Source of the DNA: Ditylenchus dipsaci
Lineage: Eukaryota > Nematoda > Chromadorea > Rhabditida > Anguinidae
DNA length: 64,000 nucleotides
NCBI GenBank assembly: GCA_004194705.1
Contig: SADC01000433.1
Location: 1 to 64,000, forward strand
Direction of reading: 5' to 3'
Shown here: piece by piece, positions 1,972 through 57,095 of the stretch
How the letters are laid out: every line of letters begins with the position of its first letter
How positions within the stretch are numbered: position 1 is the first letter of the stretch
Program-made: the position numbers and the translations under genes
Notes under the pieces: generated by a model
Seen by the model: only the letters and a program-made list of their open reading frames with translations
Databases searched by the model: none
Told to the model about the DNA's origin: nothing

Positions 1972-3466
1972 GGACAAAGCTTTTTTTTTGCAGCTAAAAG
2001 ACTTTTTTTTTGCATCTTAAAGACTTTTTTGCAGCTAATCGACTTTTTCTGCAGCTAAAAGACTTTTTTTCGCAGCTAATTGCCTTTGCAGCTAAAAGAC
2101 TTTTTCTTGCATCTAAAGACTTTTTTTTGCATCTAATCGACTTTTATTTGCAGCTAAAGGAATTTTTTCTGCAGCTATTTTTTTTAAATAAAAATTTGCT
2201 TTTTTATGCTTGTTTGTTATTTTTAGCAGGATTATTACACAGTTAAAGAGAGGAGGGATACCAATCATATTTTGAGCTCTCAGGTTCAAATCCCCCTGGG
2301 TGCACGTCCTATTTTTTACTTTATTTTTGATGTTTTTCGCACATTTTGTTATTAAAAGGTTGCTCAGGCTCTTGTCTATCCAGGTAACCATCAGCAAAGA
2401 GTTCATAAACTGCTGGAGCTCACTAACAAGCCATGACTTTGCTTACGCCTTCTTTTTATCCGAAAATACATCATCTTTGGGTTCTTCTCACAGCTTTGAA
2501 TGTTATATATTCCACTGTTATTTGTCACTGCTTCTTTTCTATACGCTTAAAAGGTAGTGCTGCGTGCGATGCGATATATCGCATCGCAAACATCGCAACA
2601 TCGCACGAAATTTTGCCTTAAACATCGCATCGCAAAGTTTTGAAACATCGCAACATCGCATCGCAAATCTGAAACGACATCGCAACGACATCCATCTGAT
2701 GTAATGATTAGTGCTGCGTGCGATGCGATATATCGCATCGCAAACATCGCAACATCGCACGAAATTTTGCCTTAAACATCGCATCGCAAATCGCATCGCA
2801 AAGTTTTGAAACATCGCAAAATCGCATCGCAAGTCCTCGGACCCAAAAACATCGCATCGCAACATCGCAAAAACACAAATGCGCAGCACTATTAAAAGGC
2901 ATCTAAGTGTCGGACTCGAGTTCATCAAGGGCAACAATTATAAACTGGGAATGGCGCTGCAGTCGTAGGCTTCCGGTACTAGCTTATTAAGAAGTTAATA
3001 TCACATTTTGAGAAGTCACAAAATCAGTAGCAAAGGAGGTGATGAAAACAAAAGTAATGACTTCTAGCTGGTTGCCTCTATTTTGATGGTCATTTGCACA
3101 AAATCAAGGTACTTGCCGACAGCAAAGCAGTGCTGGAAATGACATCAATCGATTGCTGGATACTTTTGGCCCTGGAGGTGGGTTAAACTCACTAAAATGG
3201 AGTAAAAAATAGGGTGTGCACCGAGGGGAATTTAAACCTGAGAGTTCAAAAATGATTCATACCCCTCCCCTCTTCAACTCTATAATAATCCTCGCTAAAA
3301 ACAACAATACAAGCATAAAATAAGCTGATTTCATTTAAAAAAATAGCTGCAAAAAAGCCTTTTAGCTGCAGAAAAAAGTCGATTAGCTGCAAAAAAAATT
3401 AGATGCAAAAAAAAAAGTCTTTTAGATGCAAAAAAAGTCTTTTAGCTGCAAAAAAAAGCTTTGTCC
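1972..3466. mobile_element. Mutator-like non-autonomous element with long TIRs
   Basis: The ends GGACAAAGC and GCTTTGTCC are flanked by a perfect 9-bp duplication, CTTAGTTAT (1963-1971 and 3467-3475). Both arms carry a tandem, slightly varied GCAGCTAAAAGACTTTTT unit and continue inward as an inverted repeat of several hundred bases, including a tRNA B-box-like stretch (GGTTCAAATCC) near 2284. No transposase is seen. Long TIRs plus 9-bp duplications are typical of Mutator-like elements. A hAT element (2555-2891) is inserted inside. Confidence 0.8.
2555..2891. mobile_element. hAT-type MITE (TAGTGCTGCG ends)
   Basis: Flanked by the perfect 8-bp duplication TTAAAAGG (2547-2554 and 2892-2899). 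TIR is TAGTGCTGCG / CGCAGCACTA. The body is a string of CATCGCA units. A second copy of the left end starts at 2709, so the element is a partial tandem or self-nested insertion. Confidence 0.85.
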
Positions 3467-3854
3467 CTTAGTTATGGTCATTGTAAAGTATAGTCTGAGA
3501 AGTTATACGTTATTGTGGACTTTATTGAGATGTATTTGTGCGAGTGACCATTTCCCGGCACCGCGGCACCATGACCCACCTGTAAGAAGAAAAGCCTTGA
3601 TAAAATATGGTAGAGCTATAATAAAAAGTTATTGAGGTTCTGTAAGTTTTAATTGTCGCCCGGATGCATACACTTTCAGCAATTTCGAGATTCGTCTATT
3701 TTGACGACATTTTGTTATATACTCAGGTGTCTAATTAGAGAAAATAAGGTATATGCAATAACATAGCATACCATGAAATCACTATCAATCACTTTTACTT
3801 TTACAGAAAGCTCAGATTTTATGCTTTTTGGCGGTATATCGCTGAGGACGAATA

Positions 3855-18187: not shown

Positions 18188-18710
18188 GGAGTGGTTTGAG
18201 CCAAAAATACTCTATGGGTTTTTTTGCAATAGTCTTTCAAATACGACTATTACTTAAAGTAGTACTTGCGATACTACTTTTTTCAAGGATATTGGATGGG
18301 GGAGGTTTAGCTGGCCAGCCGTACAAGTACCTTGAAATATAGTATTAAAGGTGCATGCTTATGTGATCAGAATCGGTGTCAGCTTATTTAAAAAAATTCC
18401 TAATCATTGAGATTTTTTGTACGGATTTTTCAACTTGTTTTCAAAACTATGCCCTTTCAAGGGTAGATATCAGGAGTGCGTCGAAATTCCGAAATCTATT
18501 ACTTTTGAGTTCCGAAATCCGAATTCCAATTCTGAAAGTTCTCTAAATTTATAACTTCAAAAAAATAAAATGATAAAAACAAAAACAAACTTCCTAGTTG
18601 TAAATAAATTTAGAACTGCTCTCCACCAATATAACAGGTTTTTGTACTTTGTTTTCACGGAAGGAGGAATAAATAATCATACTAAATAAATTAAAAATGA
18701 GTATTATATA
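18188..18710. other. Upstream of SLC22 gene; no separate gene
   Basis: AT-rich. Contains a stretch (18395-18450) resembling the interior of the TTAA element at 56862 (ATTTTTTGTACGGATTTTTC). No promoter motif I would defend. Confidence 0.4.
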
Positions 18711-36800: not shown

Positions 36801-38157
36801 TAAAATCTCTTAAAAGTTAGAATTTAATTTTTTTCGCAAATAAATATTAATTCATTCAGACCAGGGTGTCAATCAACAAGCAATTTCGGTTGACCGCACT
36901 GAAAAAACCAGTACAAAACCAAAATTTTCTGTCTGTTTGTACGCTTGCAGCGCTGGCGCAGGAATTTTGAAAATGAATTTCCGAAACATGCAAGTATGAT
37001 TATAAGCCAGTAGGGTCAAAATACCTTTATTTTTCCAGTGAGTTTTAAAAATTGAAAGTTTTCATTCTTCTCCACTATGACATTAGATGGTTTCAAATCT
37101 CCATATATGATGTTATGTTTATGCAGCCAGTGCAGACCTTCCGCGATTTGGCGTAGAAATAAACAAGCCAAGTTTTCAGTTAATGGTTTTTTTTCTTTTA
37201 AGAAGTCATCTAGGGTGTCTCCATTAACAAATTCCATCACGGATCGGTAGACGTTTTCTTCTGTGTAAGGCATTGTAAAAGGCTCTTCTACCTTTAATTT
37301 GTGATTAATAATTTTTAATTGAAAGCAATTTTTTTGTAATTTGGAACCACATCTTGCTACTTCGATTTCGAACCCCTATTTCGGCCTATCATGTAGAGGA
37401 ATTTATTTTAGGCAGGGCCTTACGGATCAGGTGTAAGAAAAAAATGCAATTTTCAGGTATCACTGCTAGAGTGGCTAATTCTACATTTTTTGTTTTGTTT
37501 TTTATATTAATTTTGGAAAGTATATTCACAGCGTGATATAACGCGATAAAAAGATCTCAAAAAAAGATTTATAAAAAGACTTAAGAAGATTTTATCAGTA
37601 ACGCAAACCCAAAGTTAGAAATACAATCACTTTCCACTTTTCACAGAAAAAAAATTATATTGGCTTCCTTTTTTGCTTTAGTACTCTGGAATGCTGATAT
37701 CTTTTTGAAGTTACCTTATCTGTAGCAATAAGCTCTGCAAGAAAGGGACATTTTGGCAATTGTTGCGCTGCGTCTGCATCATAAATTTCTAACATTTTCG
37801 AAATGACTTGTACTTCAATTTTGCTTGCGTCTTGTGTAGCGTCCATTAATTTCATAGCAAAAAAGTGTTTAGCACTATTTTGTCTGTCACTACCTTTAAA
37901 CTGCACTTTCCAAACTTTCCCAAAGGCACCTTCTCCTAACATTTCTGTGCCTGCGACGTCTTCGAAATCATCTGGAGTAGTTTTCGTGATGATTTTTTCT
38001 CTACTTTTTTCTTTAGCTTCTTTGCTTGCCTTAGTTTCGCCACTCGTGATTTTTTTAATTTTTCTGTTAAATAATATGTTCCTTTGCTAATATGTGGCGA
38101 TAATTTGCGCCAATACGAGCCTTTGTCTATTTTCCTCTGCTGTACTATTTCCTTCAT
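33808..38157 (-). CDS. AGC-like Ser/Thr protein kinase A
   Basis: Exons found: 37715-38157, 37025-37291, 36637-36730, 34054-34205, 33808-33994; C-terminus not located. Kinase elements in order: glycine loop MLGEGAFGKVWKV; VAIK-type FFAMKLMD; alpha-C Glu in KIEVQVISKM; hinge VMEFVNGDTL; catalytic loop IIYGDLKPSNV (HRD reads YGD, but D, K and N are present); DFG in IIDFGLS; GTKKYISPEI; DWWAFGILMYKML; then an acidic insert and FPDKVISPDAKDLLSRLL. DWW and the C-lobe suggest the AGC group. Residues normally between SPEI.. and DWW are missing, so a small exon was missed in the 2.4-kb intron. One-base errors are needed in A-runs near 38055 and 36680. Likely active as an enzyme; pathway unknown. Confidence 0.85.
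34323..35407. mobile_element. Large fold-back element (GGCTAAAGTGCATTA), copy 2
   Basis: GGCTAAAGTGCATTATCAG..CACCTAAAATGACCC at left is mirrored by GGGTCATTTTGGGCAGCTG..CACTCCGGCC at right. CTCTGG repeat inside (34850-35110), and a Harbinger-like MITE nested at 34508. Lies in a kinase A intron. Confidence 0.7.
34508..34797. mobile_element. PIF/Harbinger-like MITE
   Basis: Ends GGGCCGTATGCATTGGCAGC / GCTGCCAATGCATACGGCCC, flanked by CTG (34505-34507, 34798-34800). The body is a palindrome of GGATAGGATTAATCCTATCC units. A 3-bp duplication and GGGCC termini fit Harbinger, though the usual TWA target is not seen. Confidence 0.7.
35409..35468. mobile_element. GACGGG-family element, right end only
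   Basis: GATTACACATTTTGACGGG twice, then GTGTTTTC. The same end occurs at 46296 in the full copy. Confidence 0.65.
35480..36260 (+). pseudogene. GC-rich coding-like island with many frame breaks
   Basis: Distinctly richer in G+C than its surroundings, with coding-like runs in successive frames: SSPLGSPYVECVPVEVSSSL, ELTRIGREYDLE, TDPDLTVRGDIRKY, ITVYGQLDEDRYGVKVSGPG, FSYQLRRKSADGSQPTDRPS, KLFLDQSAEIDLKKKKP. Frame shifts occur every 60-150 bp. It sits in a kinase A intron beside a GACGGG-element end. I do not recognise the protein; it could be a captured gene fragment or an unpolished exon cluster. Confidence 0.35.
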
Positions 38158-40658: not shown

Positions 40659-43600
40659 TTAAACCAATAATTCATTTTTAATATTTTCAGAATCATTTTC
40701 TAAAATATTTAAAGTTAGAAAACCTGTTTCTTCTCGTTTAATAGCTATTGGATCGACTTCTGTTTTCTGTTTTTGAAACCATTTATTTTGTGTGATATTT
40801 TTGTCATAATCGCTCTGTATTTCCCTGTTGGAAAACACAGCAAAGATTTTAATAACTTTTCTGCTTCAGAAGAAATTTTTCGCTTAGCTGGGTATACAGT
40901 CTAAATTTTGATGTCAATTTATTACGTAAAGATATTAAAAAAAACTTTGCAGTAAAATTCAGAATTTTTTAGCATCGCTGTTCCACGCTTTCTTTAGTGT
41001 AATTTTGAAGTTTTTTTCTGATTCAAAAGGCTCCTCTCCTACCAATAAAATAAACATTAATTTTCCGAATGACCACCAGTCGTAAAAGTAAATCTAAGTT
41101 AAATGAATAGTTAATTTCAAATTTTTTTAATAAATTAATTATTTTACTGATTCCTCAGGCTTTTCGAAATAGTTTGATAATCCAAAGTCGATTAGCTGCA
41201 ATAAAAAAAAGTCAATATAATAAATTTTAAACTTTGGGAAACAAAGTGAATGCACCCCCTCTAATTACGCACTCCTCTTATGAAAGCACCCCTGAAGGCA
41301 GGTTGTAAAATAAATGCACCCGTACACTAACTAGAAAGAATACGGTATGTAAACTACATAACTATGTAACCGTAAATAGTTCTGTAACCATGATTAGCAT
41401 GAAAATGGCTCTCATAGTGCTTTAAAGCCAAATAAATAGCTTTCGGCGTGTTATGTCTCAAAAAATCAAAACATTCTTACGTAAAAGATTTGCAAACTCG
41501 AAATTCTAAAACCCAATTCCGTTGAGATGAGATTGCTCTGTGTGTAAAACTGCTTTCCTGCCTAATTTTGAACTTCGTTCGAGATGAAAAAGATTCAAGT
41601 ACAGCCAACTCCCGCTGTGGTGACACCCCTCGGGACCGGCCTTGGAGTGTCACTATAGTGAGGGTGTCACCATAGCGGGGTGTTCTATGGCGGGTTTTTC
41701 GCCAAAATTCCGACAAGTATCACTATATCGAGGGTTTTGCAATTATACTTAATACATTCAACTACTCGTTATTGTACACCCCAAAAATTCGTTCCGGCTA
41801 GGTCCAACTTTTTCACCTTTTTCGAAGTATTCGGACAGCTTCAAATTTTCAGCCTAGCCCCAAATATCAAACTGATTCCATCATTTGTGAGGACTATATT
41901 TGCAATTTATAATCGCAACTCTCGATAAAAAATATAGTAGATGTGTGGGTTGCATTTTTTCTGTATACTTGCCAGAAATTACGCTTTTTGAGGAAATTAC
42001 CAATGTCTCAGAGCACTTTTAAATGTAAGTGATTTAACCAATCCGATTTTTGAAAATTCTATTTTTGACTAATTTATTTTCTGACGAAGCCTGATTTTGG
42101 CGAAACATGTTCTTTATGAATCAATCTTTGCGACCCTGAATAGCAAAACTACAGTGGTTAGTGAAAAATGACTAAAACTAACCAATTTCGTTAGACAGTG
42201 ACTACAAAACAGCGTTATTAATATCTCAAAATTTTACGGACAGCTGTCACCAATTGTTTTTTAAAGAAATTTGGTACTGATTCTGTTTAGGGGGCACCCT
42301 AAATAGGCGCACCCGAATAGGTACGGAAATTCTCATTAAAAAAATTAGGCTAAAGTACATTATTTGGCCAGAGCCAAAGTGAGTTTGGCCCAAAGCGAGC
42401 GCAGGGGGCTTGAGAGTCAGAGATTCGCGCACAGACTTACCTTACACATGATTCCGACTCATGATTAAAAATGCATCAAGAAGCTCTTTTTGCAAAGCTC
42501 CAGTGACCAAAACGGGGTAAAATACCAAAAAATGACCAAACCATAGGGGAGACCAAGGCAAAAATTGACCAAAGACCACACGCGACTTTAATTGATTAAG
42601 GTTGACATGCGTCACTAGGGCAGGATCTTTTTTGGCAATATTTTTTTTTTTTCAAAAACTTGAACGGCAGTCCTTTTTTGAACAGTAGTTTACAATAGAG
42701 TGGTAAGTGTCCCTGCCGATCCATAAACAAATACGGTACCCTCGATAAAAAAATATTTTGAATATATTTGTTTTTTGGATGAACGGAAAAAATTCCGGCG
42801 TTATATGGTATTTGCCATGTGTCCGTCTTACCATTTCTATAAATTTGATTTTTCATGCAATTTTTTAAAGGAGCATGCCGTGCGTTACACGGTGAAGTTT
42901 GAATTTCCAAAAGGCGTGGACCACTTTAATGCGTGAGATCAAAAAAATTCAAATTCAAAATTCAGTTTCGTTGTAATTGCTGTAAGGTATCTTATATGGA
43001 ACATGCTTCCCGCTTCGGACGGTATCCAGGTGTAGCTTTTAGAGATTTTCAGCTTATGGAGAAGTTTAACTGTATCTAAATGGATGGTAAGGAATTTGCA
43101 AAATGTAAGTCGGTTAAATACGTTTGCACCAAAAATCACTCTTTGAACTCTGTCACACAGCCTATTTTTTCGACATAAATATACACTTTATCAAGGTACC
43201 TACAGTCAGTTCAGTCCCTGAATAAAAAAACTACACTATATTAGGTGTTACACCGTATCGAGAGTGAACAATATCAAATTTAACTGTAACCATACTAAGC
43301 ATACCATAACCGACCGCTGTCAAATTTGTGGAGTAAGTTAAAATGAGTTTAGGGGTTATCAGGGCGCTATCTCGTCTAAGCAAAACTCCGGCGCATGTGT
43401 ACAAAATTAATTGACAGGCATTTACAGACCGATAAAATCAATAACTACATTTGCTGGCTAGTTATTACTAGAAAAACTTGGTTTCATAAGTTGACTACAA
43501 ACGCATGGGTCAACTAAAAATTAGCCATATACCGAGATCTAACTTTGAAGCTTTAGATATATAAAAAGCTCTCTCAAAATAATTGACAAGTTAACACTAC

Positions 43601-45388
43601 AAGACCACCAATTTATATACTACAACAAGAAGACAGAGTGAATAGACAAAGTAAACGTTTTCCTACTTCTTGGCAACTTCCATCTTGGTCTTGTAATCTT
43701 GGTGGCAATCTTTCGGCTCTCAACCAGAACGGCACGAATTATTCGCTGGCGGATAGCAGCTCCGCTCAAACATCCACCATAGGCACGCGAACCTGTCTTC
43801 TTCCGCTTCGTAGCTAGCTCCGACAATTGTCGGGGGCGAAATGCTGAATCTGTAATGCAAAAATAAATAAAAGAGACTAACTAAAATAAAGCGTCACTGA
43901 CCCGTGAAGGCGAAACCAGTATTCTCACACTTAGGCACTTGCCGATCTTCTTGCGATAGAGCAACACATTTTTTCCTCACCGGCGTCTTCGAAATCTTGG
44001 TCCTTATTCGACTTGGTGTTGTAGCACAGTCGGCGGCGATAAGTCACGCGTTGCACCATTTTTTTTAGCTAAAATTGATCACCGTGAAAAGGAGCCAAGG
44101 TTGGCACTGAAGTATCCATAAGCTATGCAAGCAGGAAAATGAAGTTCGCATAACAATTGCGCAGCACACGTCTGATACACTACAGCGATTACAACGAAAC
44201 TGAATTTTGAATTTCGGGCTAGGACACTTGGAGCTGGACACTTGGAGCTGGGGACACTTGGAGCTGGACAGTTGGAGCTGGCTTTTTTCAAACTGGTTTT
44301 TCATACAGACAATTGTTTTTCAAAAATTTAACTAAATTTGAAAAAACCAGCTTCAACTGTCCAGTTCCAAGTGTCCCCAGCTCCAAGTGTCGTTTTATTG
44401 AATTTCTTGGTCTCACGCCTTAAAGTGGTCCCGCCTTTTGGAAAATCAAATTTCACCGTGTAACGCCCGGCATGCTCCTTTAGGTGATAATTAATTTTGT
44501 CCGCAAATTGCTGAAAAATGTCCACAAATTGATGGAAAAATGTCCGCAAATTGCTGAAATGTGTCCGCAAATAGGATTATTAACTCAGAGTCTAATTTTG
44601 TGTGCTAAGCATGATTTTTGAAACTTTGGTGTGAAAGTTTTGGTATTTCTATGCAACTAGAGGTAAAAATCATGCCTTGCCTGCAAAACCTCACTCTGAG
44701 CTATAAAAAAACAAATTTTGGGACACATTTCAGAATATTTGCGGACATTTTTAAGCAATTTGCGGTCAAAATTAATTACCACCCGCTCCTTTAAACAAAT
44801 GTAGAAAACTTTCTGTTACGTTGTATGCTATCTTTAAAAAATGGTTTAAGATTGTGCTTTGTTGTGGCTGTTTTTCGATTTTCAGCTAAAAATTTTGGAA
44901 AAAGCCGAGGGTAGTTAGGAGGCTGGTACCAGGAAAGGGTAGGCGGAAGGAGGGTGGCCAGGAAGGGCACTCAGATATGAGATGGATTACTATTCACTTA
45001 AATTTTTCTGCTAACTTAAAAGTAAATTCTATAAAAAAAATTTTACAGTTTTGTAAATGACCTGGTTTTTAACATACCTTTAAAATGCCATTTATTTCGT
45101 TTATGGTTGGCGTTTATAATACACATAGCTTTTTCTTTAAGCATTATGTTTTCTGGTAACACATTCTCCATAAACAATATCATTTGAATGCAAGTAATCA
45201 AGCGCATTGGCTAATTTGGCTCAAAAAAACACGAGCTAAATTTTCTGTAACTACTTTTTCTCTTCTCAAAAAATCGCTTAGCAGCTCATCACCAAAAAAA
45301 TCCATTACAACTGCGTAATGTGGTTCTTTGCACAAAGAAGATCTTGATAGCTGAAAAGGCATTACGATATTTGAAAAATATCTAATAA
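40659..45388 (-). CDS. AGC-like kinase B, probable pseudokinase
   Basis: Paralogue of kinase A, upstream in the same orientation. Exons: 45078 to about 45388 (HYAVVMDFFGDELLSDFL; REKVVTENLARVFL; ALDYLHSNDIVYGD.LPENIML); 41148-41195 (LIDFGLSNYFEKPEES); about 40933-41093 (FYDWWSFGKLMFILLVGEEP); 40659-40887 (ISSEAEKLLKSLLCF ... EETGFLTLNI, stop). N-lobe exons not found. The catalytic loop lacks the usual Lys (VLPEN instead of LKPEN), and DFG is followed after about 14 residues by DWW, with no GT..Y.SPE segment. One-base fixes are needed near 45225, 45185, 40945 and 40823. The 3.9-kb intron contains the RPL34 element. Degeneracy could partly be assembly damage. Confidence 0.7.
41255..41345. mobile_element. 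CCGTATTT-family remnant
   Basis: CACCCCCTCTAATTACGCAC to AAGAATACGG, then TA; left end lost. Confidence 0.5.
41602..41925. mobile_element. pogo-type MITE
   Basis: TA at 41600-41601, then CAGCCAACTCCCGCTGTGG and GGTGTCAC/GTGTCACTATA units; the right arm carries AAATTCGTTCCGGCTAGG and ends at a worn CAACTCTCGATA. Confidence 0.6.
43620..44059 (-). CDS. RPL34: 60S ribosomal protein L34 (eL34)
   Basis: Large-subunit ribosomal protein. Exon 1 (43902-44059) opens MVQRVTYRRRLCYNTKSNK, the eL34 start, and contains ISKTP and YRKKIGK.PKCENTG. The intron (43850-43901) is GT..AG, phase 1. Exon 2 (from 43849) reads DSAFRPRQLSELATKRKKTG, the diagnostic SRAYGG, and IRQRIIRAVLVESRKIATKI. Three one-base changes in exon 1 (GG, A6, CC runs) restore the family reading. 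A fourth in exon 2 would end the protein KMEVAKK-stop at 43663 instead of 43620. Of the usual two CxxC pairs the first is present and the second reads CLSG. The retained intron excludes a processed pseudogene. It lies inside a TIR element within a kinase B intron. Confidence 0.9.
44217..44396. repeat. Fold-back nested in the RPL34 element's right TIR
   Basis: GGACACTTGGAGCTGG units (four, slightly varied) on the left, CCAGCTCCAAGTGTC on the right. It interrupts the right arm, whose sequence resumes on both sides. Confidence 0.75.
44483..44784. mobile_element. Mutator-like MITE (GGTGATAATTAATTTTG)
   Basis: TIR GGTGATAATTAATTTTG / CAAAATTAATTACCACC and 9-bp duplication GCTCCTTTA (44474-44482, 44785-44793). 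It landed exactly on the right TTAA boundary of the RPL34 element. Subterminal TGTCCGCAAATTGCTGAAA repeats. Confidence 0.8.
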
Positions 45389-45407
45389 CTAGTGTTTTAC
45401 GGTGGTC

Positions 45408-45610
45408 GTTTTTCAAGGATGATATAGGGCTCGGGCTTGAGTATAGAATCCACCCCCCCTCCCCCACGCGCAGAGTGCTGGATGGAGGAGATAACTTCAT
45501 ATTCGTGTTTCTCGGCCCCAATTTCATAAGAAAGCCGGCTGTTTTTTGGATTCTGAGAAAAAAAAATTTTTCGAAAAACAGGGGGGGGGGGGTTATCATG
45601 GTTTTTATAG
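45408..45610 (+). repeat. Inverted repeat Q, left copy
   Basis: GGGCTCGGGCTTGAGTATAG, AGAGTGCTGGATGGAGGAG, AAGAAAGCCGGCT and TTATCATGG in order. The reverse copy at 49060-49235 flanks the OTU-carrying element on its other side. Confidence 0.75.
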
Positions 45611-45621
45611 GCTATAAGTGA

Positions 45622-56861: not shown

Positions 56862-57091
56862 AGGGGCATACCCACGCTAATAAGAGGTGGTGCCCGGGAA
56901 TTCAAAATTTTTCCTAATCACTGAACTTGTGTACGGATTTTTCAACTTGGTTTCTAACAATACCATACCTAGAATTTAATTCTAGGCCTTGTTTTGTTAG
57001 AAACCAAGTTAAAAAATATGTACGGAAGTTCAATAATTAGGAAAAAATTTGAATTCCGGGCACCACCTCTTATTAGCGTGGGCATGCCCCT
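56862..57091. mobile_element. TTAA-flanked MITE (AGGGGCATACCC)
   Basis: TTAA at 56858-56861 and 57092-57095; ends AGGGGCATACCCACGCTAAT / ATTAGCGTGGGCATGCCCCT; near-complete fold-back. Confidence 0.85.
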
Positions 57092-57095
57092 TTAA

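What the first reader, a model, noticed from the sequence alone, without database searches (positions are those of the whole stretch)
42865..44794. Intron-containing RPL34 enclosed by a TTAA-flanked TIR element
The L34 gene, its intron and about 110 bp of 5' flank lie between ~120-bp inverted repeats whose ends (AGGAGCATGC..GCATGCTCCT) abut TTAA on both sides. A ribosomal protein gene moved by a cut-and-paste element would be a striking gene capture. If it is the only L34 copy, an essential gene now travels as transposon cargo.
Basis: partly seen in the sequence, partly recalled or inferred. Interest (0 to 1): 0.88.

Follow-up and report, generated by a model that had tools for sequence, protein, structure and literature searches.

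The report
Ribosomal gene multiplied as transposon cargo
In a plant-parasitic nematode, likely Ditylenchus dipsaci, a ribosomal protein gene (L34) with its own intron sits inside a TTAA-inserting transposon and has copies at about 43 places besides the ordinary host gene; the copy in this window is broken, but differences between the copies show that the protein was kept under selection, likely while it travelled in the transposon.

Summary
The structure is real. At 42865-44794 an L34 gene with its intron lies between inverted repeats ending AGGAGCATGC, with TTAA on both sides; paralogous empty sites show one clean insertion. The right arm carries two nested inserts. The window's L34 is a frameshifted pseudogene and not the only copy: the assembly holds 45 L34 loci. 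C98 (with probable haplotig C134) is the housekeeping gene; C919 is an intact, TIR-free relative; of 36 non-host loci read, 33 have the TIR nearby (7 loci were not read). Several elements carry the gene in both inverted arms; 6 element-type copies are intact. Between element families L34 differs by 14 synonymous and 1 amino-acid fixed-type changes, whereas changes private to single copies look neutral (35:74; Fisher p = 6.5e-6). TTAA target, purine-pyrimidine ends, and an element with similar ends holding a PF20700 transposase point to a Kolobok-like TIR family. Reading: a divergent L34 paralog was likely captured once, amplified, and kept functional in source lineages while most copies decayed. 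Whether constraint acted inside the element or in a resident gene that refreshed it is not settled. No expression data were available.

The parts
42865..42868 (.). left TTAA target-site copy
42869..42991 (+). left terminal inverted repeat (AGGAGCATGCCG...)
42992..43662 (.). interior, downstream of the L34 3' end; partly shared with clade B copies C28, C1 and C1314
   Evidence: 79-80% identity
43663..43850 (-). L34 exon 2 (pseudogene); 3' UTR follows on the low-coordinate side
43851..43900 (-). L34 intron (about 50 bp by alignment; same position as in the host gene and in C919)
43901..44059 (-). L34 exon 1 (pseudogene), ATG at 44057-44059
44060..44173 (-). 5' flank shared by element copies (trans-splice-acceptor-like ATTTTAG just before the ATG); beyond about -20 it does not align with C919
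   Evidence: the acceptor reading is inferred
44174..44214 (-). right terminal inverted repeat, inner part
44215..44397 (.). nested inverted-repeat insert splitting the right arm (limits approximate)
44398..44482 (-). right terminal inverted repeat, outer part (ends GCATGCTCCT + TTA)
44483..44784 (.). second nested small inverted-repeat element, flanked by GCTCCTTTA at 44474-44482 and 44785-44793
44791..44794 (.). right TTAA target-site copy

Best explanation
This is an old, broken copy of a TTAA-inserting terminal-inverted-repeat transposon that carries an L34 gene with its intron; the gene was likely captured once from a divergent resident L34 paralog, has copies at about 43 loci besides the host gene, and was likely kept functional in the source elements while most daughter copies decayed. 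Shown: one insertion at TTAA; 45 L34 loci, with TIRs beside 33 of the 36 non-host loci read; intact genes with splice sites in several elements, in C1044 one in each inverted arm; synonymous changes dominating between families while copy-private changes look neutral; an element with similar ends holding a PF20700 transposase. Inferred: that this transposase type moves the L34 elements in trans; that capture was at the DNA level (the intron is kept); that C919 descends from the donor; and that selection acted while the gene was in the element, so that the protein is made and used.
For: Empty sites: of 11 matches elsewhere to the joined flanks, 9 span the junction; 5 of 5 fetched align straight across it with a single target site, which still reads TTAA in 2 of the 5. 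Copies: PF01199 81 matches, all 90 candidates scored; union = 45 loci. TIR beside L34: 32 of 36 non-host loci in fetched DNA (one of them, C10, by 42 bp only) plus C480. Intact ORFs: 7 of 45 non-host copies (C1044 both arms, C1208, C1255, C1138, C1188, C919). Selection: fixed-type differences (75% threshold) A vs B 14 S: 1 N, A1 vs C919 23:2, B vs C919 19:1, A1a vs A1b 5:1; singletons in 29 element copies 35 S: 74 N (5 stops); neutral N:S expectation 2.8-3.1; Fisher p = 6.5e-6. NG86 C1044 vs C919: dS 0.40, dN 0.008. Coding divergence is below intron divergence: A1a-A1b 0.030 vs 0.075, A1a-B 0.115 vs 0.282. Mover: C1154:72037-74950, TTAA + AGGGGCATGC ends, 640-bp arms 99.2% alike, PF20700 match; L091, 2,428 bp, TTAA + AGGAGG ends, PF20700 in one ORF at 4.3e-7.
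Against: TIR divergence between families (0.06-0.09, 3 pairs each) and, for A1a-B, 5'-flank divergence (0.18) are lower than intron divergence (0.28), which would fit exchange of the gene piece with a resident gene, or constraint or homogenisation of the ends; A1b-B flanks differ by 0.27, with an insert there. One subfamily, A2 (C195, C1285, C376, C618), shows no constraint (6 S: 12 N vs A1, with a lost start and a stop). Within A1a, singletons are 4 S: 14 N, and C1044 vs C1255 is 4:4. 38 of 45 non-host copies are not intact. C919 groups with clade B in the tree (86), although a tree with all elements together is not rejected (AU p = 0.257). The published assembly mentions no short-read polishing, so one-base indels may be errors. 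No expression data.
Confidence: 0.75

Rival explanations
1. The constraint acted in resident L34 genes (the C919 lineage or lost siblings), and elements captured L34 repeatedly or were refreshed by gene conversion; in the element the gene is only a neutral passenger.
For: Singletons look neutral; TIRs are less diverged than introns between families; C919 is intact, TIR-free and sits near clade B; C1255 is intact with no TIR found, though it has the element's 5' flank.
Against: Clades A and B share the order TIR, 5' flank, gene (A1b has an insert within the flank). Both stand about equally far from C919 (A 0.39-0.47, B 0.37-0.60 in dS), so neither looks recently refreshed. Among the 38 of 45 loci read, only C98, C919 and C1255 are intact without a TIR.
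Confidence: 0.2
2. Ordinary ribosomal-protein pseudogenes: retrocopies or segmental duplicates, with the inverted repeats falling beside them by chance.
For: Most copies are broken.
Against: All 38 copies with both exons (2 host-type included) keep an intron at the same place; TIRs flank 33 of 36 non-host loci read and the window insertion at TTAA is clean.
Confidence: 0.02
3. Copies inflated by haplotigs or assembly duplication; the real number of insertions is small.
For: Published assembly 227 Mb against 160-170 Mb by flow cytometry (PMC6929663, whole text); C134 is probably a haplotig of C98.
Against: Many element copies differ by substitutions, and for the 12 loci whose flanks I joined the flanks printed look unrelated by eye. 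Haplotig pairs among the other loci were not tested one by one.
Confidence: 0.03

Closest known systems
Pack-TYPE transposons (Pack-MULE, Pack-PIF and others) of plants
   Same: Non-autonomous TIR elements that carry and multiply host gene DNA (PMC8903248, abstract start and passages; PMC13317346, abstract start and passages).
   Different: In what I saw they are described in plants and carry gene fragments. Here it is a whole intron-containing ribosomal protein gene in an animal, in several elements one copy in each inverted arm, with protein-level constraint between element families.
Kolobok superfamily
   Same: TTAA duplications and 5'-RR...YY-3' ends; a DxxH motif in the transposase of elements with similar ends (features from passages of PMC9587614).
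   Different: The L34 elements read encode no transposase that I recognised; relationship to Kolobok transposases was not tested directly. A survey of plant-parasitic nematodes names Kolobok-T2 as specific to the Bursaphelenchus xylophilus lineage and Kolobok-H to Aphelenchoides besseyi (PMC11118728, passages).
piggyBac
   Same: TTAA target.
   Different: The ends are AGG...CCT, where PMC9587614 contrasts piggyBac with RR...YY ends. PF13843 is common in this genome (117 matches), but by eye none lay near the end motifs listed, which shows only the first contigs.
Ribosomal-protein processed pseudogenes
   Same: A ribosomal protein gene in many, mostly broken copies (recalled comparison).
   Different: The intron is retained and copies are moved as DNA between TIRs.

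Membership tests
Kolobok superfamily | TTAA target-site duplication | tested here: met
   Empty sites, (TTAA itself kept in 2 of 5 sites); TTAA at 34 of 38 left and 31 of 42 right motif matches, (10 of the loci had been picked with TTAA in the pattern)
Kolobok superfamily | 5'-RR ... YY-3' termini | tested here: met
   AGGAGC...GCTCCT; definition from PMC9587614 passages
Kolobok superfamily | Kolobok-type DDD/E transposase with C/DxxH motif encoded by the family | tested here: inconclusive
   Two elements with similar ends have a PF20700 match and a DxWH peptide; no comparison with Kolobok sequences was made, and the L34 elements read encode none that I recognised
piggyBac | piggyBac-type termini | tested here: not met
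   Ends are AGG...CCT; PMC9587614 gives RR...YY ends as unlike piggyBac; piggyBac's own end letters are recalled
piggyBac | piggyBac transposase in elements with these ends | tested here: inconclusive
   117 PF13843 matches (116 of 211 candidates scored); by eye none near the ends listed, a list cut after contig C125
Pack-TYPE element | Non-autonomous TIR element with captured host coding DNA, multiplied in the genome | tested here: met
Pack-TYPE element | Shared TIRs with an identified autonomous family | tested here: inconclusive
   C1154 and the C1044 element share 13 of the first 16 terminal bases, the window element 9 of 16
Processed (retro)pseudogene | Introns absent | tested here: not met
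   Intron at the host position in all 38 copies with both exons

The most novel reading that the evidence does not exclude
L34 is a working part of the transposon: a ribosomal protein gene carried in both inverted arms, kept functional by selection inside the mobile element for a long time (synonymous divergence about 0.4 between families), so that the nematode makes ribosomes partly from transposon-borne L34 and the element gains shelter, because silencing it would threaten a ribosomal protein.
Probability: 0.3. Interest if true: 0.92.

Novelty: new variant of a known kind. Interest (0 to 1): 0.78.

Why it matters
Capture of gene pieces by DNA transposons is best known from plants and is mostly seen as making debris (my summary). 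Here a whole ribosomal protein gene, with intron and processing signals, is multi-copy cargo in an animal, and its protein sequence was conserved between the element families. That makes a question testable in one genome: can a transposon keep a host gene of this importance alive as cargo, and does such cargo protect it from silencing? A review says that capturing important sequences could be a way of 'camouflaging' an element (PMC13317346, passage). It also warns that L34 copy number in this crop pest's assembly is shaped by transposons.

Tried and rejected
The 'only copy' idea was rejected. piggyBac was rejected as the family on end sequence. The pogo/DDE_1-like fragment inside the C1208 element (below Pfam's cut-off) was not taken as the family's transposase: its relatives are very common in the genome (168 matches, 150 of 1,229 candidates scored) and I saw no link to these ends, without testing it systematically. 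The 5-kb C1200 element contains a nested insert with its own inverted repeats and MULE-like ORFs (my reading; Pfam gave no match for the two sent). Fourteen elements without L34 but with TTAAAGGAGCATGC ends were read; 10 ORFs from 8 of them sent to Pfam gave one weak SWIM match below that family's cut-off. The hairpin-RNA idea (inverted L34 arms silencing the host gene) has little support: the longest exact run between C1044 or C28 L34 and host C98 coding sequence is 20 nt. The flanks of C1198 lie in a high-copy inverted repeat and gave no clean junction-spanning match among those listed. Whether L34 was captured exactly from trans-splice site to poly(A) site stays open: C919 and elements align only there, but older flanks may simply have decayed.
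Full report
What is there. The element at 42865-44794 is as described: TTAA, a left arm 42869-42991, an L34 gene on the minus strand, a right arm, TTAA. The right arm is split by a nested inverted-repeat insert (about 44215-44397), and a second small element (about 44483-44784) sits in its last bases between two copies of GCTCCTTTA. Three-frame translation shows L34 peptides that jump frame, and alignment to an intact copy gives ten small indels at 87.6% identity. The window copy is a pseudogene.

One insertion. I joined the left flank (through its TTAA) to the right flank and searched the assembly. Besides the two flanks themselves there were 11 matches, apparently because the flanks belong to an older dispersed repeat; 9 of the 11 span the junction. 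I fetched 5 of these 9; all 5 align straight across it with one target site, which reads TTAA in 2 and differs by one or two bases in the other 3. The arms therefore arrived together, which excludes two separate MITEs.

Which organism. L34 relatives place it beside Ditylenchus destructor. Assembly size and shape match the published D. dipsaci draft: 227,234,012 bp, 1,394 scaffolds, largest about 3.6 Mb (PMC6929663, whole text), against 226,978,389 bp, 1,359 contigs and a 3,685,767-bp contig here. The name is an inference. That assembly was made from PacBio reads with no short-read polishing mentioned, so single-base indels may be errors and my intact count is probably a lower bound.

How many L34 genes. 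The PF01199 search gave 81 exon-level matches with all 90 candidates scored; with the DNA search these form 45 loci. I had sequence for 38 of 45; C1105 (two loci), C1264, C1289, C131, C1357 and C958 were not read. C98 is the housekeeping gene: its protein is 90.4% identical to that of D. destructor, against 83.3% for element L34. C134 is nearly identical to C98 with two one-base gaps and is probably its haplotig. Of the 36 other loci read, 32 have a TIR match in the fetched DNA (one, C10, of only 42 bp) and C480 has one just outside it; C919, C1255 and C114 have none. C1255 has the element's 5' flank, then runs into a minisatellite-like repeat; C114 was read over 1.2 kb only.

Anatomy of the family. 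Some elements are palindromes with one L34 gene in each arm: C1044 is 1,803 bp with 780-bp arms 99.5% alike, both genes intact; C287 has arms of about 922 bp; C1208 has about 800-bp arms at 95%. Others (C28, the window) have only about 120-125 bp of inverted repeat and one gene. All 38 copies with both exons keep an intron at the position of the host intron. The ten non-host copies printed have a trans-splice-acceptor-like TTTTAG before the ATG, and 7 of the 10 have AATAAA within 90 bases of the stop. Of 45 non-host copies, 7 have an uninterrupted reading frame with splice sites. L34 elements are one part of a larger group: the exact end TTAAAGGAGCATGC occurs 360 + 322 times, control 0.

Selection. 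A tree of 36 of 47 copies (11 short or rearranged ones dropped) gives clades A and B, the window copy being in B, and C919 beside B. In pairwise counts C1044 and C919 differ by 26 synonymous and 2 amino-acid changes (dS 0.40, dN 0.008). Using 29 element copies in four groups (C530, C1272, C162 and C176 left out), fixed-type differences at a 75% threshold are A vs B 14 S: 1 N, A1 vs C919 23:2, B vs C919 19:1, A1a vs A1b 5:1; singletons are 35 S: 74 N including 5 stops, not different from the neutral ratio. Fixed A-B against singletons: Fisher p = 6.5e-6. So the lineages connecting families were constrained at the protein level, while individual copies decay freely. Against this, subfamily A2 differs from A1 by 6 S: 12 N, with a lost start and a stop, so it probably multiplied as a dead passenger; and within A1a singletons are 4 S: 14 N.

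Where the constraint acted. Clades A and B share TIR, 5' flank and gene in the same order (A1b with an insert in the flank), and both are about equally far from C919, which favours constraint inside the element after one capture. But TIRs differ by only 0.06-0.09 between families (3 pairs each) where introns differ by 0.28, and C919 groups with B at 86, although a tree keeping all elements together is not rejected (AU p = 0.257). Exchange with a resident gene therefore remains a rival. C919 lies between two kinase-like exons (my reading by eye), is intact, has no TIR match in 3.5 kb, and aligns with elements only from about 20 bases before the ATG to just after the poly(A) signal; beyond that it is at random level. 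It is the best candidate for the donor's descendant.

What moves it. TTAA duplication and 5'-RR...YY-3' ends are the features given for Kolobok, unlike piggyBac (PMC9587614, passages). A Pfam PF20700 (Mutator-like transposase) search gave two matches. One, C1154:72037-74950, is a complete TTAA-flanked element with AGGGGCATGC ends and 640-bp arms 99.2% alike around a transposase match with stops; the other, in L091, is 2,428 bp with AGGAGG ends. Both show a D-x-W-H peptide, fitting the C/DxxH motif named in that paper. The C1044 element shares 13 of its first 16 terminal bases with C1154, the window element 9 of 16. So the L34 elements are probably non-autonomous relatives moved in trans; this is inferred.

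Literature. Searches for gene capture with ribosomal protein genes, Pack-MULE and Pack-TYPE, nematode capture, Ditylenchus with L34, and full-length captured genes under selection (listings, plus passages of PMC11118728, PMC8903248 and PMC13317346) showed no ribosomal protein gene as multi-copy TIR cargo. The library is open-access only and most hits were not opened, so a report elsewhere is possible. Selection on rice Pack-MULE genes is known to me here only from a cited title.

Verdict. Capture and amplification of L34 by a TTAA/TIR element is secure. Protein-level constraint between families is well supported. That the element itself keeps L34 alive is likely but unproven, and expression is untested.

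Noticed in passing
window 18345-18360 and 57078-57095: Further ends of the same type (TTAA|AGGTGCATGCTTAT at 18349; GCATGCCCCT|TTAA ending at 57091), so other members of this TTAA group probably lie in the window.
   Followed up: no
window 44474-44793: Small inverted-repeat element (GGTGATAATTAATTTTG...) with a 9-base repeat GCTCCTTTA on both sides, nested in the last bases of the L34 element.
   Followed up: partly
L045 (C919) 1-110 and 3434-3476: The TIR-free intact L34 gene C919 lies between two kinase-like exons, in an intron with other inverted repeats.
   Followed up: partly
L097 and L090 (G000 C1154:72037-74950): TTAA-flanked element with AGGGGCATGC ends, 640-bp nearly perfect arms and a PF20700 transposase match with stops: a likely relative of the element that moves this group.
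   Followed up: partly
L091 (C1265) locus 111-2547: 2,428-bp TTAA-flanked element with AGGAGGACGAAA ends and a PF20700 match in one ORF.
   Followed up: partly
L076-L089; 682 exact ends of this type in the assembly; the 14 L34-free elements read are mostly palindromes of 2.3-6 kb plus one 240-bp MITE, and 10 ORFs from 8 of them gave no Pfam family over its cut-off.
   Followed up: partly
window 37655-38086 and 45198-45611, minus strand: Kinase-like ORFs on either side of the element whose order does not fit one simple gene.
   Followed up: no
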